A program made the position numbers and the translations under genes. The notes beneath the pieces are model-generated. The model saw only the letters and a program-made list of their open reading frames with translations, ran no database searches and was not told where the DNA came from. From Streptomyces sp. NBC_01465 (GTDB lineage: Bacteria > Actinomycetota > Actinomycetes > Streptomycetales > Streptomycetaceae), in the NCBI RefSeq assembly GCF_036227325.1, contig NZ_CP109467.1, positions 1,178,001 through 1,242,000 on the forward strand: 64,000 bases of DNA, read 5' to 3'. How positions within the stretch are numbered: the stretch's first letter is position 1; each line of letters begins with the position of its first letter. This document shows positions 28,469 to 36,316 of the stretch, piece by piece.

Positions 28469-28520
28469 GCAACTGGCAAGGTGTGCTCACCACTTGATCC
28501 ACTTCCCCCGGGGGACCCCG

Positions 28521-29432
28521 ATGACCGCCACGGCTCCGTACACCGTCGCACTCGCACCGCATGTCCACGCCTATGTCCAGCCGGACGGCGGCTGGTGTCT
28601 CAACAATGCCGGGATCGTCAGCGACGGGGTGTCGACGCTCCTCGTCGACACCACCGCCACGCTGCGGCGGGCCGAGGCCCTGCGCGAGGCGGTGACCGCG
28701 GTCGGGGCGCCGCTCCCGCGGACGGTCGTCAATACGCACCACCACGGGGACCACACCTACGGCAACAGCCTCTTCGCCCCGCACGCGACGGTCGTCGGCC
28801 ACGACTCCTGCCGCAGCGAAGTGCTGGCCGCCGGGCGCCAGCTCCATCTGGTGTGGCCGCAGACGGACTTCGGCGACATCAGCATCACGGCGCCCACGCT
28901 CACCTACAGCGAGCGCCTCACCGTCCATCTCGGGGAGACCGAGGTGCGGCTGATCCACCCCGGTGTGGCGCACACGGTCGGCGACACCGTGGTCCACCTC
29001 CCCGGGCAGGGCATCGTCTTCACCGGCGACCTGGTCTTCCGGGGCGGCACGCCCTTCCTGCCGATGGGTTCGCTCAGCGGGTCGCTGCGGGCGCTGGAGC
29101 TGCTGCGGTCGCTGGACGCGCAGACCGTGGTGCCGGGGCACGGCCCGGTCACCGATCCCTCCGCGTACGACGACACCGAGCGCTATCTGCTGTACGTCGC
29201 CGAACTGGCCGGGGCCACCCACGCCAAGGGCCTCACCCCCCTGGAGGCCGCGCGCGAGGCGGACCTCGGCGAGTTTCGTGCGCTGCGCGAGAGCGAGCGC
29301 CTGGTGGCCAATCTGCACCGCGCCTACGCGGAGCTGGACGGCCTGCCCGAGGGGTCCCCGCTGGATCCGGTGGCCGTTTTCGGGGACATGGCGGCGATGA
29401 ACGGCGGGGTTCCCGTGGCCTGTCACGCATAG
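28521..29432 (+). CDS. Metallo-beta-lactamase-fold hydrolase
   Basis: A 303-residue MBL-fold protein. The zinc motif HHHGDH is in NTHHHGDHTYGNSL, with further ligands in HPGVAHTVGD, the aspartate of FTGDLVF and the histidine of VVPGHGPV. The ATG at 28521 with GGGGGACC upstream is preferred to one at 28494. It probably acts on a thioester, lactone or ester; the substrate is unknown. It precedes the kinase/dehydrogenase pair on the same strand, but a 90-bp gap containing its own promoter and operator separates them. Confidence 0.85.
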   Translation: MTATAPYTVALAPHVHAYVQPDGGWCLNNAGIVSDGVSTLLVDTTATLRRAEALREAVTAVGAPLPRTVVNTHHHGDHTYGNSLFAPHATVVGHDSCRSEVLAAGRQLHLVWPQTDFGDISITAPTLTYSERLTVHLGETEVRLIHPGVAHTVGDTVVHLPGQGIVFTGDLVFRGGTPFLPMGSLSGSLRALELLRSLDAQTVVPGHGPVTDPSAYDDTERYLLYVAELAGATHAKGLTPLEAAREADLGEFRALRESERLVANLHRAYAELDGLPEGSPLDPVAVFGDMAAMNGGVPVACHA

Positions 29433-29450: not shown

Positions 29451-29479
29451 TGGACTGCATACCGACTGGTCGGCATGAT
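29451..29479 (+). promoter_or_regulatory. Promoter and TetR-type operator of the APH/acyl-CoA dehydrogenase unit
   Basis: The near-palindrome ATACCGACTGGTCGGCAT (29459-29476; one mismatched pair plus a two-base centre) lies between TGGACT (29451-29456) and CATGAT (29474-29479), 17 bases apart. The 12 bases ATACCGACTGGT recur, on the opposite strand, at 34992-35003, ahead of the SDR/ligase/TetR unit. Confidence 0.65.
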
Positions 29480-29522
29480 GTGTGCGTACGCCACTCGTCA
29501 TCACCATCCGGAGGTGCCTCCC

Positions 29523-30545
29523 ATGAGCGCAGTCCACCCCCCAGGCATCGACCCGGAGGCACTCCGCGGCCATCTCGACCGCGCGCGCCCCGGTCTGGTG
29601 AGCGGACCGCTCAGCGCCCGGCTGATCGAGGGCGGCCGCTCGAACCTGACCTATGTCGTCACGGACGGCACCGGCCGGTGGGTCGTGCGCAGGCCGCCGC
29701 TCGGGCACGTACTGGCGACCGCTCATGACATGAAGCGCGAGTACCGGGTGATCAGCGCGCTCCACCCGACCGCCGTGCCGGTCCCCGAGCCGGTGCTGCT
29801 CTGCGAGGACGAGACGGTGATCGGATCGCCGTTCTACGTCATGGAGTTCGTCGAGGGAACGCCGTACCGCACGGCGCCCCAGCTCGCCCCGCTCGGTGCC
29901 GAGCGCACCCGCGCGGCGGTCCTCGGACTGGTCGACACGCTCGTCGATCTGCACGCCGTGGACCCCGAGGCGGTCGGGCTCGCCGACTTCGGCCGGCCCG
30001 AGGGCTTCCTCGACCGTCAACTGCGGCGCTGGGGCAAGCAGTTGGACGCCTCGCGCAACCGTGAACTCGCCGGCATCGACGAGCTGCACGCCGCACTCGG
30101 CCGTGCACTGCCCGACTCCCCCGCGCCGACCGTCGTCCACGGCGACTACCGCCTGGACAACGTGCTCCTCGGTGACGACGACCGCATCAAGGCCGTCCTC
30201 GACTGGGAGATGTCGACGCTGGGCGACCCGCTCACCGACCTCGGCCTGCTGGTGATGTACAGCTCCGACCTCGGCATCCCCGACGCTCCCGTCTCGACGA
30301 CGAGCGGCGCCGCCGGCCACCCCTCCCCCGCCGAGCTCGTCGCGCGGTACGCGGAGCGCTCCGGCCGGGACACCTCCGCGATCGCCTGGTACACGGCCTT
30401 CGCCTGGTTCAAGCTCGCCGTGATCCTCGAGGGCATCCACTACCGCTACACCCTCGGCCAGACCGTCGGCGCCGGCTTCGACCAGATCGGCGGGCTCGTG
30501 CCCGTCTTCATCGAGCACGGACTCACCACCCTCCAGGAAGGCTGA
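29523..30545 (+). CDS. APH-fold kinase, LvaA / ACAD10-11 kinase-domain type
   Basis: A 340-residue protein-kinase-like fold enzyme. Nucleotide-binding segment GGRSNLTYVVT, hinge MEFVEGTPY, catalytic loop VVHGDYRLDNVLL and metal-binding VLDWEMSTLGDPLTDLG are all present. This subgroup is not an antibiotic kinase. Homologues include LvaA of Pseudomonas and the N-terminal half of ACAD10/ACAD11, which phosphorylate the hydroxyl of 4-hydroxyacyl-CoA. The ATG at 29523 has GGAGG. The acyl-CoA dehydrogenase follows after nine bases, which mirrors the domain order of the animal fusion. Substrate is inference. Confidence 0.85.
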   Translation: MSAVHPPGIDPEALRGHLDRARPGLVSGPLSARLIEGGRSNLTYVVTDGTGRWVVRRPPLGHVLATAHDMKREYRVISALHPTAVPVPEPVLLCEDETVIGSPFYVMEFVEGTPYRTAPQLAPLGAERTRAAVLGLVDTLVDLHAVDPEAVGLADFGRPEGFLDRQLRRWGKQLDASRNRELAGIDELHAALGRALPDSPAPTVVHGDYRLDNVLLGDDDRIKAVLDWEMSTLGDPLTDLGLLVMYSSDLGIPDAPVSTTSGAAGHPSPAELVARYAERSGRDTSAIAWYTAFAWFKLAVILEGIHYRYTLGQTVGAGFDQIGGLVPVFIEHGLTTLQEG

Positions 30546-30554
30546 ACACCCGCC

Positions 30555-31769
30555 ATGGACTTCGCATACGACGCCAGGACCGAAGAGCTCCGCACCAGGC
30601 TGCTGGCCTTCATGGACGAGCACGTCTACCCGGCGGAAGCCGTCGCGCACGAGCAGCGCGCGCTGCTCGACTCACCGTGGGACACCCCGGCGGTGGTCGA
30701 GGAGCTCAAGGAGGAGGCGCGCCGGCAGGGGCTCTGGAATCTTTTCCTTCCGGATGCCGAGTACGGTGCCGGGCTGACCAACCTCCAGTACGCCCCGCTG
30801 GCCGAAATCACCGGCCGCTCCCCGCAGTTGGGCCCGACCGCGCTGAACTGCGCCGCCCCCGACACCGGGAACATGGAGCTTCTCTTCCAGTTCGCGAGCG
30901 AGCAGCAGAAGAAGCAGTGGCTGGAGCCGCTGCTCGCCGGGGAGATCCGCTCCGCGTTCGCGATGACCGAGCCGGAGGTCGCCTCGTCGGACGCGACGAA
31001 CATCGAGACGCGGATCGAGCGGGACGGCGACGAGTACGTCGTGACGGGCCGGAAGTGGTACATCTCCGGGGCGATGAACCCCGACTGCAAGATCTTCATC
31101 GTGATGGGCAAGACGGACCCGGACGGCTCCGACGTGCGGCGGCAGCAGTCGATGATCCTGGTCCCGCGCGACACACCGGGGGTCGAGGTCCGGCGGGCGA
31201 TGACCGTCTACGGGTACGAGGACCACTACCACGGCGGTCACGCGGAGGTCGTCTTCGACGGGGCGCGGGTGCCGGCGGCGAACCTGGTGGGCGAGGAGGG
31301 CGGCGGGTTCGCCATCGCGCAGGCGCGGCTGGGTCCGGGCCGGATCCACCACTGCATGCGGCTGATCGGGATGGCCGAGCGGGCCATCGAGCTGATGTGC
31401 CGGCGAGCGGTGTCCCGCGAGGCGTTCGGCAAGCCGCTGGCTTCGCAGGGCGTCGTACAGAACTGGATCGCGGACGCGCGGGTCACGGTGGAGCAGCTGC
31501 GGCTGCTGGTGCTGAAGACGGCGTGGCTGATGGACACGGTGGGGAACCGGGGGGCGCACACCGAGATCCAGGCCATCAAGATCGCTACGCCTCGGGCGGT
31601 CGTCGACATCATCGACAACGCGGTGCAGTTGCACGGGGCGGGCGGGGTCAGCCAGGACTTCCCGCTGGCGGAGCTCTGGGCGGGGGCGCGGACGCTGAAG
31701 CTTGCGGACGGGCCCGATGAGGTGCACCAGCGGTCGCTGGCGCGGCGGGAACTGAAGCGGTACGTGTAG
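30555..31769 (+). CDS. Acyl-CoA dehydrogenase, LvaC / ACAD11 dehydrogenase-domain type
   Basis: A 404-residue flavoprotein with the ACAD signatures AMTEPEVASSDATNIET, GRKWYISGAMNPDCKIFIVMG, the helix RIHHCMRLIGMAERAIELM, REAFGKPLASQGVVQNWIAD and the C-terminal VQLHGAGGVSQDFPLAELWAGARTLKLADGPDEVH (described in parts). The spacing to the kinase gene suggests translational coupling. In the ACAD10/11 and Lva systems the partner dehydrogenase eliminates phosphate from 4-phospho-acyl-CoA to give an enoyl-CoA. The gene ends at a repeat-containing terminator. Confidence 0.9.
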   Translation: MDFAYDARTEELRTRLLAFMDEHVYPAEAVAHEQRALLDSPWDTPAVVEELKEEARRQGLWNLFLPDAEYGAGLTNLQYAPLAEITGRSPQLGPTALNCAAPDTGNMELLFQFASEQQKKQWLEPLLAGEIRSAFAMTEPEVASSDATNIETRIERDGDEYVVTGRKWYISGAMNPDCKIFIVMGKTDPDGSDVRRQQSMILVPRDTPGVEVRRAMTVYGYEDHYHGGHAEVVFDGARVPAANLVGEEGGGFAIAQARLGPGRIHHCMRLIGMAERAIELMCRRAVSREAFGKPLASQGVVQNWIADARVTVEQLRLLVLKTAWLMDTVGNRGAHTEIQAIKIATPRAVVDIIDNAVQLHGAGGVSQDFPLAELWAGARTLKLADGPDEVHQRSLARRELKRYV

Positions 31770-31796
31770 CCGGGGCGGGTTGGCGCGGCCCCACAC

Positions 31797-31845
31797 GGGG
31801 GCTCCGCCCCCGGACCCCCGCTCCTCAATCGCCGGAGGGGCTTGA
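31797..31845 (+). repeat. 49-bp intergenic repeat, copy 1
   Basis: Identical over 49 bases and in the same orientation to 46075-46123. It contains a GGGGG/CCCCC hairpin and ends in CCGGAGGGGCTTGA. It lies directly after the acyl-CoA dehydrogenase gene. Elements of this kind recur at Streptomyces gene ends and probably act in termination or RNA stability. Confidence 0.8.
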
Positions 31846-31893
31846 TTTTGCTGCACTTGCATCGCAAGTACAGGCAAGATCAAGCCCCTCCGG
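31832..31893. terminator. Nested double-stem bidirectional terminator
   Basis: CCGGAGGGGCTTGAT (31832-31846) and ATCAAGCCCCTCCGG (31879-31893) are perfect 15-base arms. Inside them ACTTGC (31855-31860) and GCAAGT (31864-31869) form a second stem. The convergent acyl-CoA dehydrogenase and TetR genes end on either side. Confidence 0.8.
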
Positions 31894-31898
31894 GGCTG

Positions 31899-32495
31899 TT
31901 ACGGCCGCAGCGCCCTCAGCAGGAGGTCCGCCAGGTGGTCCGCCACCTCCACGTGCGTGAGCGGGCCACCCGGGCGGTACCACGTCGACAAGTGGTGGAT
32001 CGAGCCGAAGTGGTAGTCGACCACCAGGTCCGCCGGTGTCGCCGTCGAGAAGACGCCCTCCTTCTGGCCCTCCTCGATCAGCGCGCGGAAGCGCTCGTGG
32101 TAGCGGCGGCGCTCCCCCCGTACCTGCTTGTTCTTCTCCGGGCTCAGATGGTGCATCGAGCGGAAGAAGATCGACGCGTCGTCGAGGTTCTCGATGGTCG
32201 TCACGACCACGTCCGCCGCCGCGTCCCGCAGCCTCTTCTCCACCGGCGCGTCCGCGTCCGCGAAGGCGTCCAGGCGTTCCTGCTGGAGGCGCAGCACCCG
32301 GGCGTAGACCTCGTGGAGGAGGTCTTCCTTGGAGCCGAAGTAGTGGTAGAGCGCGCCCTTGGTGACCCCGGCCGCCTCCACGATCTCCTGGACCGAGGTG
32401 CGGTCGTAGCCCTGCTCGGCGAAGAGGCGGGTGGCGGCAGCCAGCAGCCTCTGGGGGACGGGGGTACCGTTCCCGTCGGTCGTCCTGGCTGCCAT
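31899..32495 (-). CDS. TetR-family regulator of the kinase/dehydrogenase/ligase regulon
   Basis: A 198-residue protein. The TetR helix-turn-helix is TSVQEIVEAAGVTKGALYHYFGSKEDLLHEVYARVL at about 30-66 (quoted for orientation). The C-terminal ligand domain contains the aromatic/histidine-rich FRSMHHLSPEKNKQ and GSIHHLSTWY, resembling acyl-CoA-responsive KstR2/FadR-like repressors. It is the third gene of the SDR-ligase-TetR unit, 30 bases after the ligase. Two copies of a shared operator core flank this block, so it probably represses both units and responds to a CoA thioester intermediate. Confidence 0.85.
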   Translation of the reverse strand: MAARTTDGNGTPVPQRLLAAATRLFAEQGYDRTSVQEIVEAAGVTKGALYHYFGSKEDLLHEVYARVLRLQQERLDAFADADAPVEKRLRDAAADVVVTTIENLDDASIFFRSMHHLSPEKNKQVRGERRRYHERFRALIEEGQKEGVFSTATPADLVVDYHFGSIHHLSTWYRPGGPLTHVEVADHLADLLLRALRP

Positions 32496-32525
32496 CAGGC
32501 CGCCACCCTTCTCTCTGTTCTCTGT

Positions 32526-34193
32526 TCAGTGGGGGGAACGCAGTTCCCGCCTGAGGATCTTCCCACTCGCCGTCTTCGGCAGCTCCGGCAGGATCTCCAC
32601 CTCGCGCGGGTACTTGTACGCGGCGAGGCGTTCCTTGCAGTACGCGGAGAGGTCCCCGGGCTCCAGTTCGGCACCCGGGCGCAGGCTGACGTACGCCTTC
32701 ACCGACTCTCCCCGGTACGCGTCCGGGATCCCCACGACCGCCGCCTCGCGCACCGCGGGGTGCGTGTAGATGACGTCCTCTACCTCGCGCGGCCAGACCT
32801 TGAAGCCCGACGCGTTGATCATGTCCTTCTTCCGGTCGACCACGTACAGCCAGCCGTCGGGGTCCATGAAGCCGATGTCGCCGGTCCTCAACTCCCCGTC
32901 GGGGAAGGCCGCTTCCGTCGCCTCGGGCAGACGCCAGTAGCCGGAGACCACCTGGGGGCCGCGTACCGCGATCTCGCCCTGTTCGCCGAAGGGGACGTCG
33001 TCGCCGTTCTCGTCGACGATACGGACGACCGTGTCGGGTCCGGGAACGCCCACGGAGAGCGTGCCGGAGACCGGGTCGACCGGGGCCTCGTGCTCCGGCG
33101 GGACCGCCGCGCAGGGCGCGGTGCACTCGGTGAGTCCGTACCCGTTGCGGATGTACGGGCCGAAGCCCGCCCGGAACTTCTCCACCAGGGCCGGCGGGAC
33201 CGGCGCCCCGCCCGAGGAGATCACCTGGAAGGAGGAGAAGTGGTCGGGGGTCGCGCCCGGGGTCGCGGCGAGCGCCATGAAGGCGGTCGAGGGGCCCACG
33301 GTGTAGGCGGGGCGGTGTTCGAGGAACGCGTCCAGTACGACGCCCGGGTGGAAGCGGTAGGCCAGCACCAGGGTGCCCGCGTTGGCGAGGGCGGTGGCCA
33401 GCTCGCAGACCATGCCGGTGATGTGGAAGAGCGGGGCCAGGGCGAAGTAGGCCGCACCCTCGGGTATGGGGTGGCCGGTGCGCTGGCGTTCGGCGTTGAT
33501 CATGATGTTGCCGTGGGCGTTCATGGCACCCTTGGGGGTGCCGCTCGTGCCGGACGTGTAGCTGATCAACGCCACGTCGGTGGCCGCCAGTTCGCGGTCG
33601 TCGGGTGCCGGGTGGCCCTGGCGGGCCACCGCCAGGAGGTCCGCCGCGTCGGCTGCCTGCTCCAGGCGGTCGAAGCCGAGGACGCGCTCGTCGTTGCGCG
33701 TCTGGAGGTCGCGTTCGCAGGCGGTGAGGGCCGTACGGACCGGGGAGTCGGCTGCCGTCTCGCGCAGGTAGGAATCCCAGGCGCGGTCCGAGCAGATCAG
33801 GGCCGAGACCTCGGCGTCGCGCAGGACATGGCCGACCTCGCCCGACTTGTACATCGGGTTGAGCGGCACCACGACCGCCCCGGCCTTCCAGGCGCCGAGC
33901 AGCGCGAGCACGAAGTGCGGGCTGTTCTGCAGCATGATCGCGACGCGGTCGCCCTGCCGGATCCCCTCGGCGGCGAGGTGGCCCGCGACCGAGTCGGAGA
34001 GGGCGTCGGTCTCGCGGTAGGTGAGGCGGCCGTCGAAGTAGGCGATCGCGGGGTGGTCCGGGGAGCCGGCCACGCTGTCGCGGAAGGCGTGCAGGACGGT
34101 GGGGCGGGGGTCGAGCGGGGCGCGCTGGGCCTCGCTGAGGCGGCCGAGCCAGGGCTTGGCCGCGTAGATCGACGCCGGTGCTGTGCTGGTCAC
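32526..34193 (-). CDS. AMP-forming acyl-CoA synthetase, LvaE-like position
   Basis: A 555-residue ligase. P-loop is SYTSGTSGTPKGAM, A5 is NGYGLTECTAPCA, hinge is WLYVVDRKKDMINASGFKVWPREVE and the catalytic Lys is in LPKTASGKILRRELR. The start is the GTG at 34193, which overlaps the SDR stop by four bases (GTGA); the longer frame to 34487 translates SDR sequence out of frame. It would make the CoA thioester that feeds the SDR, kinase and dehydrogenase. Acyl chain specificity is unknown. Confidence 0.88.
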   Translation of the reverse strand: MTSTAPASIYAAKPWLGRLSEAQRAPLDPRPTVLHAFRDSVAGSPDHPAIAYFDGRLTYRETDALSDSVAGHLAAEGIRQGDRVAIMLQNSPHFVLALLGAWKAGAVVVPLNPMYKSGEVGHVLRDAEVSALICSDRAWDSYLRETAADSPVRTALTACERDLQTRNDERVLGFDRLEQAADAADLLAVARQGHPAPDDRELAATDVALISYTSGTSGTPKGAMNAHGNIMINAERQRTGHPIPEGAAYFALAPLFHITGMVCELATALANAGTLVLAYRFHPGVVLDAFLEHRPAYTVGPSTAFMALAATPGATPDHFSSFQVISSGGAPVPPALVEKFRAGFGPYIRNGYGLTECTAPCAAVPPEHEAPVDPVSGTLSVGVPGPDTVVRIVDENGDDVPFGEQGEIAVRGPQVVSGYWRLPEATEAAFPDGELRTGDIGFMDPDGWLYVVDRKKDMINASGFKVWPREVEDVIYTHPAVREAAVVGIPDAYRGESVKAYVSLRPGAELEPGDLSAYCKERLAAYKYPREVEILPELPKTASGKILRRELRSPH

Positions 34194-34954
34194 TTGCCCG
34201 CCCCTTCCCACTTCTGCTGCAGGTGGTTCATATTGCCGATCCAGCGGTCGGGGTCGGCCGCCCGCGCCTGGTAGTAGCCCGCGACCTCGGGGTGCGGCAG
34301 GACCAGGAAGCGGTCCTCGGCGATCGCCGTGAAGAGCGCGTCGGCGACGTCCTCGGGCTCGATGGCGGTCGGTGTCAGGACGAGGTCGCCCGCCGAGCCG
34401 GACGCCGTGAGCATGTCGGTGCGGACACCCTGCGGACAGATCGCGTGGACCTTCAGACCCCGGTGGCGGTAGGTGAGCGCGAGCCACTCGGCGAAGGCGA
34501 GGGCTCCGTGCTTGGTGACGCTGTACGGCGCCGCGCCGATCATGGTCAGCAGCCCCGCGGCCGAGACGGTGGAGACGAAACGGCCCTCGCCGCGCTCCAG
34601 CCAGTCGGGAAGGAGCTCTCGGGCCGCCCGTACGTGGGCCATCACGTTCACGTCCCAGGCGGAGGCCCAGACGTCCTCGTCGGCGAAGGCGTCGCCGCCC
34701 GAGCCGAGGCCGGCGTTGGCGCAGTAGATGTCGATGGTCCCGCCGAGCGCCTCGCGCGCCTCGGCGACGATCCCGGAGGCGTCTCCGGGGAGCGCGATCG
34801 CTCCGATCGCCTCGGCCGACGCCTTGGTCTTGTCCGGGTCCAGATCGTTGACCACGACTCTGGCTCCCTCGGCGGCGAACCGGCGGGCCAGCGCGGCCCC
34901 GATCCCGCCGCCCGCTCCTGTGACCACGACGCCCGCGCCCTGGACCGTACTCAT
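34190..34954 (-). CDS. SDR-family oxidoreductase, LvaD-like position
   Basis: A 254-residue short-chain dehydrogenase: GAGGGIGAALA cofactor motif, NDLD after strand 2 (NAD-type acidic residue), CANAGLG, and catalytic SAAG...YSVTKHG. It would interconvert a keto/hydroxyacyl-CoA, matching the 4-ketoacyl-CoA reductase role of LvaD. The ATG at 34954 lies 37 bases downstream of the operator copy at 34992-35003. It is the first gene of SDR-ligase-TetR and is translationally coupled to the ligase. Confidence 0.87.
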   Translation of the reverse strand: MSTVQGAGVVVTGAGGGIGAALARRFAAEGARVVVNDLDPDKTKASAEAIGAIALPGDASGIVAEAREALGGTIDIYCANAGLGSGGDAFADEDVWASAWDVNVMAHVRAARELLPDWLERGEGRFVSTVSAAGLLTMIGAAPYSVTKHGALAFAEWLALTYRHRGLKVHAICPQGVRTDMLTASGSAGDLVLTPTAIEPEDVADALFTAIAEDRFLVLPHPEVAGYYQARAADPDRWIGNMNHLQQKWEGAGK

Positions 34955-34988
34955 CTGGACCTGCCTCTCCCTTGAGTGCACCAGCAGA

Positions 34989-35004
34989 CTAACCAGTCGG
35001 TATG
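34989..35004 (-). promoter_or_regulatory. Second copy of the TetR operator core
   Basis: On the minus strand 35003-34992 reads ATACCGACTGGT, identical over 12 bases to 29459-29470. The following half is degenerate (TAGT instead of CGGC). It lies in the 120-bp region between the SDR unit and the divergent NamZ-like gene and so could influence both. Confidence 0.6.
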
Positions 35005-35074
35005 TGTCATTGGAAGGGGTCAGGGGGCTAGCCTGCGTGGCCATGACAGTCGGAGCGATCACGGAGGTAGTCAA

Positions 35075-36316
35075 GTGAGCCTGTCCAGAAGGGGATTGCT
35101 GGCCGCGAGCGGCGCGGTCGGCGCCGCGGGTGTCGTGACATCCGGTGCGGGTACGGCCGCCGCGCACGGGCGGGTGCGGACCGGTTTCGACCGGCTGGCC
35201 GCCGACGGGTACCGGCTGCTGGCCGGGCAGAAGGTCGGCATCGTCACCAACCCGACCGGCACCACCCAGGACGTGCGCCACATCGTCGACGTCATGCACC
35301 CCGACCCCCGGGTGAACCTGACCGCGGTCTTCGGGCCCGAGCACGGGTTCCGGGGCACCGCGCAGGCGGGCGGGTCCGAGGGGCGCTACGACGACCCGGC
35401 GACGGGGCTGCCGGTCTACGACACGTACACCAAGAGCGGGCAGCCCCTCGCGGACATCTTCACCGCGTCCGGCGTGGACACCGTCGTGTTCGACATCCAG
35501 GACGCGGGCGCGCGCTTCTACACGTACATCTGGACGCTGTACGACTGCATGGAGGCGGCCGCGCTCGCCGGCAAGCGCTTCGTCGTCCTGGACCGGCCCA
35601 ACCCGGTGACCGGGCGGGCGGCGCTGGGGCCCGTCATGCACCCGGAGTTCGCGACGTTCGTCGGGCGCAAGCCCATCTCGCAGGCGCACGGCATGACGGT
35701 CACCGAGCTGGCACGCCTCTTCAACGGCGAGTATCTGGCGCAGCCGGTGGAGCTGGAGACCGTGGCCATGTCGGGGTGGCGGCGGCGCGACTTCTTCGAC
35801 GCGACTGGGCTGCCGTGGGTGCCGCCGAGCCCGAACATGCCGACGCCCGACACGGCGCTGGTCTACTCGGGCACCTGCCTCTTCGAGGGGACGAACCTCT
35901 CCGAAGGGCGCGGTACGACAAGGCCGTTCGAGCTCCTGGGCGCGGAAGGCATCGACGGGAAGTGGGCCGCGGCAGCGAACGCGCTCGGCCTGGACGGGGT
36001 GCGCTTCCGGGAGGCGTACTTCGCTCCGACCTTCTCCAAGTTCCAGGGCAAGACGGTCGGCGGGGTCCAGCTCCACGTCCAGGACCGGGAGTCGTTCGAC
36101 CCGGTGCGCACCGCGATCGGGCTGCTGGTGACCGCCCAGCAGGTCTGGGACGGATTCGCCTGGCGGTCCGACAACTGGATCGACAAACTGACGGGTTCCA
36201 CGCAGGTCCGCACCCTGATCGACGCGGGGGCCTCCACCGACGAGGTCGTCGCCGCCTGGCAGGGCGAACTGGCCGCGTTCCGGGCCGTACGGAAGCGGTA
36301 TCTGGCCTATCACTGA
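35075..36316 (+). CDS. Tat-exported DUF1343 protein, NamZ-like exo-N-acetylmuramidase (GH171)
   Basis: A 413-residue exported protein. Residues 2-32 form a Tat signal (SRRGLLAASGAVGAAG, AAA-HG). The GH171 domain begins VGIVTNPTG and carries AVFGPEHGFRG, VFDIQDAGARFYTY, VLDRPNP, and the C-terminal FSKFQGKTVGGVQLHV. Family members cleave terminal N-acetylmuramic acid from peptidoglycan fragments. The GTG at 35075 has GGAGG seven bases upstream. No MurNAc recycling genes (murQ/murP type) adjoin, so its role is cell-wall turnover or scavenging by inference. Confidence 0.87.
   Translation: MSLSRRGLLAASGAVGAAGVVTSGAGTAAAHGRVRTGFDRLAADGYRLLAGQKVGIVTNPTGTTQDVRHIVDVMHPDPRVNLTAVFGPEHGFRGTAQAGGSEGRYDDPATGLPVYDTYTKSGQPLADIFTASGVDTVVFDIQDAGARFYTYIWTLYDCMEAAALAGKRFVVLDRPNPVTGRAALGPVMHPEFATFVGRKPISQAHGMTVTELARLFNGEYLAQPVELETVAMSGWRRRDFFDATGLPWVPPSPNMPTPDTALVYSGTCLFEGTNLSEGRGTTRPFELLGAEGIDGKWAAAANALGLDGVRFREAYFAPTFSKFQGKTVGGVQLHVQDRESFDPVRTAIGLLVTAQQVWDGFAWRSDNWIDKLTGSTQVRTLIDAGASTDEVVAAWQGELAAFRAVRKRYLAYH

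What the first reader, a model, noticed from the sequence alone, without database searches (positions are those of the whole stretch)
29451..35004. A Streptomyces counterpart of the Lva / ACAD10-ACAD11 gamma-hydroxy acid pathway, split over two co-regulated units
Sequence shows an APH-fold kinase (29523-30545) nine bases before an acyl-CoA dehydrogenase (30555-31769), the same order as the two halves of animal ACAD10/11. Opposite lie an SDR, an AMP-forming CoA ligase and a TetR gene (34954-31899). Known: in Pseudomonas the lva operon uses a ligase (LvaE), a 4-keto reductase (LvaD), a kinase (LvaA) and a dehydrogenase (LvaC) to turn levulinate into an enoyl-CoA by phosphorylation of the 4-hydroxyl and elimination. 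All four activities are present here under one apparent operator. No LvaB-like small activator is visible, which would be a real difference. Inference: this unit feeds levulinate or 4-hydroxy fatty acids into beta-oxidation.
Basis: partly seen in the sequence, partly recalled or inferred. Interest (0 to 1): 0.85.

Follow-up and report, generated by a model that had tools for sequence, protein, structure and literature searches.

The report
Streptomyces ACAD11-like hydroxy-acid degradation locus
Nearly all Streptomyces carry, as two neighbouring genes, bacterial versions of the two halves of the animal enzyme ACAD11, which very probably let them burn 4-hydroxy fatty acids; the set seems to be switched by its own repressor and is not the known bacterial levulinate (Lva) operon.

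Summary
In detail: kinase 29523-30545, dehydrogenase 30555-31769, and on the other strand SDR, CoA ligase and TetR, with one operator type before both units. Dehydrogenase and kinase belong to the ACAD10/11 branch (57% and 34.5% identity to mouse ACAD11), and the ACAD11 residues shown to matter for the phospho-substrate are kept (R258, H266, R269, D385). Against lva operons found in Pseudomonas, the pair falls outside the Lva branch (35.8% to LvaC, 22.9% to LvaA). LvaB (DUF6285) was found in 0 of 61 Streptomycetaceae genomes searched. The SDR is not LvaD: it is a separate subfamily with an NAD-type cofactor signature, whereas LvaD rows carry an NADP-type one. So a 4-keto-reductase step, and hence levulinate as substrate, is not supported; 4-hydroxyacyl-CoAs are. 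The dehydrogenase is in 189 of 199 Streptomyces genomes; the ligase is missing from 7 of 40 loci. The operator (ATACCGACYRGTCGG[C/T]AT) is close to the published PfmR consensus (11-12 of 13 positions) and recurs beside ACAD11-type genes in other Actinobacteria and Bacilli. New variant of a known kind; all function is inferred from sequence.

The parts
29459..29476 (+). Operator 1, ATACCGACTGGTCGGCAT, upstream of the kinase
   Evidence: 11 of 13 positions of the PfmR consensus quoted in PMC7022988
29523..30545 (+). APH-fold kinase, predicted 4-hydroxyacyl-CoA kinase (ACAD10/11 branch)
   Evidence: Pfam PF01636 202 bits; PDB 9o56 237 bits, 3dxp 184, mouse ACAD11 174; kinase tree
30555..31769 (+). 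ACAD11-type dehydrogenase, predicted to eliminate phosphate from 4-phosphoacyl-CoA
   Evidence: ACAD11 entries 456-472 bits, 4hr3 446, next ACAD 141.6; RLGPGRIHHCMR and DGPDEV kept; ACAD trees
31830..31895 (.). Long hairpin between the convergent ends of ACAD and TetR, likely two-way terminator; a repeated element of this genome
   Evidence: hairpin (z-score -7.0 for 31770-31898 as a whole); 29 exact copies of its 20-base core in the genome, this one included
31899..32495 (-). TetR-family repressor, similar over its full length to 3vpr and KstR2
   Evidence: PF17932 and PF00440; PDB 3vpr 89.7 bits over 13-196, KstR2 62.6 bits
32526..34193 (-). AMP-forming acyl-CoA ligase, optional (missing in 7 of 40 loci)
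   Evidence: PF00501 303 bits
34190..34954 (-). SDR with NAD-type signature (NDLD); conserved partner, role unsettled
   Evidence: PF00106; 38 of 40 loci; signature; single close copy in 7 of 9 genomes
34986..35003 (-). Operator 2, ATACCGACTGGTTAGTCT on the minus strand, upstream of the SDR; right half departs from the palindrome in the same way in 37 of 38 loci

Best explanation
[quoted passage not shown] Step 1 (inferred): a 4-hydroxy acid is made into its CoA thioester by the ligase, or by another ligase of the cell where this gene is missing. Step 2 (strongly inferred from branch and residues): the kinase phosphorylates the 4-hydroxyl with ATP. Step 3 (strongly inferred): the HCMR-type dehydrogenase, with FAD as a transient redox partner, removes the phosphate and yields a 2-enoyl-CoA. 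Step 4 (inferred, weak): the NAD-type SDR oxidises a hydroxyacyl-CoA, either the 3-hydroxyacyl-CoA downstream or the 4-hydroxy isomer that the kinase does not take. The TetR holds both promoters shut through one operator type until a pathway acyl-CoA releases it (operator sequence shown; binding and inducer inferred from PfmR and MbdR).
For: ACAD: 456-472 bits to ACAD11 against 141.6 to the next kind; 57.0% identity to mouse ACAD11. Mouse residues H597, R626, R631, H634, R637 and D753 correspond to H229, R258, R263, H266, R269 and D385, all kept; PMC12440821 section 7 reports that substitutions of R626, H634 and R637 were the most disruptive. RLGPGRIHHCMR plus DGPDEVH in 40 of 40 fetched Streptomyces loci. 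Kinase: D220 to D208, N225 to N213 and R176 to R165 kept. Trees: ACAD11-type against the rest 99/98, kinase split 100/100. PMC11342911 (passages): Burkholderia orthologues replaced each half of ACAD10; a Burkholderia arboris pair groups on the ACAD11 side of both trees. Operator in 39 of 40 and 37 of 38 upstream regions, and in 9 of 71 non-Streptomyces-type ACAD11 loci against at most 1 for 60 shuffled half-sites (half-site relaxed).
Against: No activity has been measured. ACAD11-type enzymes with the same motif stand without a kinase recognised next door in 15 of 16 Pseudomonas stretches read (only L238 has one), so the motif alone does not prove a kinase partner. The same kinase family also stands beside less similar ACADs (L035, L107). 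Inside the ACAD11 side of the kinase tree the window kinase is in no starred small group and not next to mouse. One substrate residue named in the paper, R86, does not fit the chain numbering; only the arginine before the alpha-C glutamate (R72 here) could be checked. The SDR's role is open.
Confidence: 0.8

Rival explanations
1. A levulinate pathway working like Lva: ligase makes levulinyl-CoA, the SDR reduces it to 4-hydroxyvaleryl-CoA, then kinase and dehydrogenase act.
For: Same four enzyme classes side by side under one operator type. In another ACAD11-branch locus (Pirellulales, L147) an SDR 49% identical to this one stands in one run with dehydrogenase, phosphatase and kinase. PMC6692424 says LvaD used NADH or NADPH, so cofactor type alone does not exclude a reductase.
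Against: SDR 27% over 198 aa to LvaD; all 16 SDRs of this type compared carry an acidic, NAD-type signature, while three LvaD-type rows carry AARR or TARR. No DUF485, symporter or sigma-54 regulator among the ten window proteins scanned (two had no Pfam match), as found in the Pseudomonas operon.
Confidence: 0.2
2. A narrower form of the best explanation: the pair acts on 4-hydroxyacyl-CoAs, but the SDR is the 3-hydroxyacyl-CoA dehydrogenase of the next beta-oxidation turn, so 4-keto acids are not substrates at all.
For: Best solved relative of the SDR is the (3R)-hydroxyacyl-CoA dehydrogenase 2et6 (108.6 bits, next 83.6); NAD-type signature in all 16 compared.
Against: SDR similarity is broad (506 PDB sequences matched); no hydratase among the five genes.
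Confidence: 0.45
3. Response to gamma-butyrolactone signals: the operator is an autoregulatory element and the locus clears hydroxy acids from opened butyrolactones.
For: Operator 1 fits 16 of 18 positions of the AvaR consensus printed in PMC5744401 (passages; my count). The best NCBIfam hit of the TetR is the ScbR model (72 bits). A Streptomyces plasmid has a pair of this kind beside an AfsA-related gene.
Against: ScbR model cut-off is 150 bits. The butyrolactone-receptor structures listed match only the N-terminal part, 3vpr and KstR2 the full length. The ScbR motif in PMC4595836 is different (passages).
Confidence: 0.05
4. An ordinary beta-oxidation dehydrogenase beside an unrelated antibiotic-type kinase.
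For: Only generic family names in Pfam, and no NCBIfam model over its cut-off for either protein.
Against: Bit-score gap to ordinary ACADs, catalytic Asp at the place of the usual Glu, HCMR motif, conserved pairing.
Confidence: 0.03

Closest known systems
ACAD10/ACAD11 of animals
   Same: Kinase then dehydrogenase in the same order; both on one side of the trees with the window pair; phosphate-binding R, H, R, catalytic Asp and kinase Asp/Asn kept.
   Different: Two separate genes here; TetR and operators; an SDR and often a ligase in the locus. ACAD10 has a HAD domain; no HAD among the five genes.
Burkholderia orthologues of LvaA/LvaC tested in PMC11342911
   Same: Separate bacterial proteins that replaced each half of ACAD10; as a stand-in, a B. 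arboris pair groups on the ACAD11 side (59.9% ACAD, 40.3% kinase to the window). The tested proteins themselves were not compared.
   Different: Relatives L122 and L117 carry a different SDR and a histidine phosphatase.
Lva operon of Pseudomonas
   Same: Same kinds of enzymes; LvaC also has H-C-M-R and Asp.
   Different: Different kinase and dehydrogenase branch, LvaB (DUF6285), different NADP-type SDR, sigma-54 regulator, DUF485 and symporter.
PfmR / MbdR-type TetR regulators
   Same: Operator 1 fits 11 of 13 positions of TACCGACCGNTNGGTN (PfmR; 12 of 13 in species with a CCGG centre) and all but one fixed position of ATAC-N10-GTAT (MbdR, induced by 3-methylbenzoyl-CoA).
   Different: Stands beside an ACAD11-type locus; inducer unknown.

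Membership tests
ACAD10/11-branch 4-phosphoacyl-CoA dehydrogenase | Catalytic Asp and phosphate-binding R626/H634/R637 (mouse numbering) | tested here: met
   D385, R258, H266, R269
ACAD10/11-branch 4-phosphoacyl-CoA dehydrogenase | Groups with ACAD11 apart from LvaC-type and ordinary ACADs | tested here: met
   25-row tree, 99/98, with a long-branch warning for L107 and the two ordinary rows; a first 40-row tree held one misread row
ACAD10/11-branch kinase | Catalytic Asp/Asn and the CoA-binding Arg R176 | tested here: met
   D208, N213, R165
ACAD10/11-branch kinase | CoA-binding Arg named R86 in PMC12440821 | tested here: inconclusive
   number does not fit the printed chain; Arg before the alpha-C Glu is kept
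ACAD10/11 proper | Kinase and dehydrogenase in one polypeptide | tested here: not met
   two ORFs, nine bases apart
ACAD10/11-type pathway | Phosphorylates 4-hydroxyacyl-CoA and eliminates the phosphate | not testable with these tools
   needs an enzyme assay
Lva operon | LvaA-branch kinase and LvaC-branch dehydrogenase | tested here: not met
   kinase split 100/100, ACAD split 99/98; lva operons recognised by gene order and Pfam, not by name
Lva operon | LvaB | tested here: not met
   DUF6285 in 0 of 1 own genome and 0 of 61 genomes of the family, own one included; that LvaB is DUF6285 follows from its place in the operon
Lva operon | LvaD orthologue | tested here: not met
   27% over 198 aa, different cofactor signature
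Lva operon | LvaE-type ligase | tested here: inconclusive
   33% to LvaE, 39% to the Tsukamurella ligase
PfmR/MbdR-type acyl-CoA-responsive TetR | Operator TACCGACCGNTNGGTN / ATAC-N10-GTAT | tested here: met
   11 of 13 fixed positions (PfmR) and 7 of 8 (MbdR) for site 1; site 2 is 11 of 13 (PfmR) but poorer for MbdR on its right half
PfmR/MbdR-type acyl-CoA-responsive TetR | Release by an acyl-CoA | not testable with these tools
   needs a binding assay
ScbR-type butyrolactone receptor | NCBIfam model cut-off of 150 bits | tested here: not met
   72 bits

The most novel reading that the evidence does not exclude
The ACAD10/11 route is an old bacterial catabolic module with its own PfmR-like repressor and operator, kept together from Bacilli to Streptomyces, which senses a hydroxy- or phosphoacyl-CoA directly; the NAD-type SDR is a dedicated stereochemical partner that oxidises the 4-hydroxy isomer the kinase rejects, with an NADP-type SDR (present beside it in some other Actinobacteria) doing the reverse.
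Probability: 0.15. Interest if true: 0.75.

Novelty: new variant of a known kind. Interest (0 to 1): 0.5.

Why it matters
It puts the newly found mammalian 4-hydroxy acid route into a near-universal locus of a tractable bacterial genus, as separate proteins, and separates two bacterial branches (ACAD11-type and Lva-type) that are easily lumped together. It also gives a regulator and operator with which the natural substrate could be found by asking what releases the repressor. A gene kept in 189 of 199 Streptomyces genomes implies a substrate met by nearly all of them; no paper seen in my searches names it.

Tried and rejected
Butyrolactone-receptor control: considered because the operator resembles autoregulatory elements; set aside because the listed receptors match only the N-terminal part of the TetR. 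Wider regulon in the own genome: no excess over control; one palindromic site near 1,530,700 lies beside other genes. Upstream metallo-beta-lactamase-fold gene as lactonase: HHHGDH motif, but only 11 of 40 loci show it within the fetched stretch, and none of the 60 solved relatives listed (of 82) is named a lactonase. Genes inserted between ACAD and TetR in some species: differing sizes and strands, not pursued. Pseudomonas ACAD11-type genes taken first as possible LvaC: they are not in the lva operons. First ACAD tree (40 rows) held a misread row (own_L030, branch length 10) and was rebuilt with 25 chosen rows; a kinase row read in a wrong frame (L143, three stops) was dropped. Two ligase scores of 15 did not return on a recheck and I take them for a slicing fault in loci where the ligase runs off the stretch. 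One SDR of this type (L155) was too long a frame for the signature list and was left out. The HCMR count over 80 loci (78 with Asp, 2 with Asp unread) is no independent evidence, since GPGRIHHC was a search pattern. Literature searches; several lists were capped (20 of 95, 12 of 1,658). None listed, by title or abstract start, a Streptomyces 4-hydroxyacyl-CoA kinase or levulinate locus. Rand 2017 is not held and is used only through PMC6692424 and the two ACAD papers.
Full report
Observation. The five genes stand as described, in a 9.14-Mb single-contig genome that I treat as Streptomyces (loci of the same layout carry Streptomyces titles). The two transcription units converge on a long hairpin at 31830-31895 (the stretch 31770-31898 folds with z-score -7.0). 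It is one of a repeated kind: its 20-base core has 29 exact copies in the genome, 0 for the reversed control.

Dehydrogenase. Against solved structures it scores 472, 470 and 456 bits with ACAD11 entries and 446 with 4hr3; the next ACAD scores 141.6. Of 29 ACAD matches in the own genome it is the only one of this type; the other 28 are at most 38% identical over the matched part. The active-site residues named for mouse ACAD11 are kept, with the chain numbering of the printed alignment shifted by one. PMC12440821 (abstract, section 7 and passages seen) describes those residues and the substitutions that damage them. In a 25-row tree 18 ACAD11-type rows, mouse included, are one side of a branch with 99/98 support, and 5 LvaC-type rows one side of another with 99/95; the program warns of long branches for one LvaC-type and the two ordinary rows.

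Kinase. Best solved relatives are 9o56 (237 bits), 3dxp (184) and mouse ACAD11 (174). The organism and function of 9o56 were not looked up. Catalytic D208 and N213 and the CoA-binding R165 are kept; the paper's R86 could not be placed. In a 23-row tree 5 LvaA-type rows separate from 18 others, mouse included, with 100/100. Within those 18, the window kinase is in no starred small group; mouse sits with proteobacterial kinases.

Lva comparison. No named lva operon could be reached. In Pseudomonas, DUF6285 was found in 8 of 149 genomes, and seven of those places were fetched. Pfam on L253, with two further genes read in L254, gives PrpR_N/sigma-54, APH, DUF6285, ACAD, SDR, AMP-binding, DUF485 and SSF, which fits the lvaR-A-B-C-D-E-F-G content told in PMC6692424 (passages). 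Against L253 the window kinase is 33% over 229 aa (22.9% over the tree alignment), the ACAD 37% (35.8%), the SDR 27% over 198 aa, the ligase 33%. DUF6285 has no match in the own genome nor in any of 61 genomes of the family, 17 genera, own one included.

SDR. Of the 71 loci not of Streptomyces type, 8 hold an SDR of this type within the fetched stretch (L137, L143, L146, L147, L149, L155, L159, L181); seven are actinobacterial and one planctomycete. In those 8 genomes plus the own one, searched at E up to 1e-35, 7 of 9 have a single match and 2 have two; by coordinates each of the 8 has a match, 48-67% identical, at its ACAD11 locus, and in L137's genome a slightly better one lies elsewhere. 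The genomes were chosen for having it, so this shows low copy number, not association by itself. All 16 SDRs of this type compared end the second strand with an acidic motif (NDLD, NDID, ADLD, TDLD, GDLD or ADVD); five SDRs of a second type, four of them from loci that also hold the first type, show TARK or TGRN; three LvaD-type rows (two from lva operons, one from the related L258) show TARR or AARR. That an acidic residue there means NAD(H) and a basic one NADP(H) is recalled general knowledge. Its nearest solved relative is a (3R)-hydroxyacyl-CoA dehydrogenase. I therefore do not assign it as a 4-keto reductase, though PMC6692424 says LvaD itself used either cofactor.

Conservation in Streptomyces. 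189 of 199 genomes have the ACAD at E up to 1e-100. Some weaker hits may be paralogues and were not fetched. Of 40 fetched loci all keep ACAD and TetR, 40 an APH match (one truncated), 33 the ligase and 38 the SDR; in the seven without ligase the matched parts of TetR and SDR are 103-219 bases apart. Active-site motifs of both enzymes are present in 40 of 40.

Operator and regulator. The site before the kinase scores 15-16 of 16 in 39 of 40 loci (9 in L078, the truncated one); the one before the SDR 13 of 16 in 37 of 38 and 11 in the last. Upstream regions of ACAD and TetR reached at most 12 and 11 there. The second site's right half (TTAGTCTG) departs from the palindrome in the same way in those 37, so the departure is itself conserved. 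PMC7022988 (passages) quotes TACCGACCGNTNGGTN for PfmR: site 1 and site 2 each fit 11 of 13 fixed positions, the form with a CCGG centre seen in other species 12. PMC4424350 (abstract and passages) gives ATAC-N10-GTAT for MbdR with 3-methylbenzoyl-CoA as inducer. That 3vpr, the TetR's best solved relative, is PfmR is recalled. Beyond Streptomyces the 18-base form, with the half-site relaxed to ATACCRACY after I had seen, occurs at 15 or more positions between -250 and +150 of called starts of ACAD, APH, SDR or TetR in 9 of 71 loci (Bacilli L144, L148, L185, L199; Nocardiopsis L145; Microbispora L150, L171; Nonomuraea L152; a gammaproteobacterial MAG L127), against a mean of 0.08 and a maximum of 1 for 60 shuffled half-sites.

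Against the reading. No function is measured. Pseudomonas ACADs of this type (58-62% to the window for the main copies) stand without a recognised kinase next door in 15 of 16 stretches read; a kinase elsewhere in those genomes was not looked for. The panel used to label genes sees only relatives of its members, so unlabelled genes are not evidence of absence.

A discrepancy. PMC11342911 (abstract, first part of the Discussion and passages seen) states 62% and 56% identity of LvaC with ACAD10 and ACAD11. The LvaC rows from the operons found here are 33-35% identical to mouse ACAD11, whereas a solitary Pseudomonas ACAD is 58%. KT2440 LvaC itself was not compared; I cannot explain the difference.

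Verdict. The kinase and dehydrogenase are the bacterial split form of ACAD10/11, in a locus of its own make-up and control. Works like Lva in its central two steps; not a member of Lva. Substrate class 4-hydroxyacyl-CoA likely, levulinate not supported.

Noticed in passing
31830-31895: Strong hairpin between convergent genes; its 20-base core occurs 29 times exactly in the genome, a repeated intergenic element.
   Followed up: partly
28494-29432: Metallo-beta-lactamase-fold hydrolase (HHHGDH) just upstream of operator 1, seen in the fetched stretch of 11 of 40 Streptomyces loci.
   Followed up: partly
L112 4853-13203: Streptomyces sp. NBC_00388 linear plasmid: APH and ACAD11-type pair beside KASIII, HAD and AfsA-related genes, perhaps a butyrolactone-type cluster.
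   Followed up: no
L033 5071-9167; L192 5338-8212: HAD-family gene upstream of APH-ACAD on the same strand, the domain order of animal ACAD10. L140, L145 and L154 have a HAD gene near the ACAD on the other strand.
   Followed up: no
L228-L237, L239-L243: ACAD11-type gene with the HCMR/Asp motif in Pseudomonas (77 of 79 genomes have an ACAD at E up to 1e-100) with no kinase recognised next to it in these stretches.
   Followed up: partly
L253, L035, L107: LvaC-type ACADs, 33-40% identical to the window ACAD, also keep R, H, M-R and Asp; the two branches may share one phospho-elimination chemistry.
   Followed up: partly
L078 5581-5991: One of 40 Streptomyces loci shows only the C-terminal part of the kinase (residues 204-340) and no operator before it; ACAD intact.
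   Followed up: no
L121 4702-4800: Two further operator-like palindromes close together near 1,530,700 of the genome, between other genes.
   Followed up: no
L120 6043-9778: Second APH-ACAD neighbourhood in the own genome, with a long APH-containing frame and an ordinary ACAD (25% identical).
   Followed up: partly
34976-36316: NamZ-type exo-N-acetylmuramidase gene next to operator 2 (its likely start is about 100 bases inside this frame), matched in 32 of 40 Streptomyces stretches.
   Followed up: no
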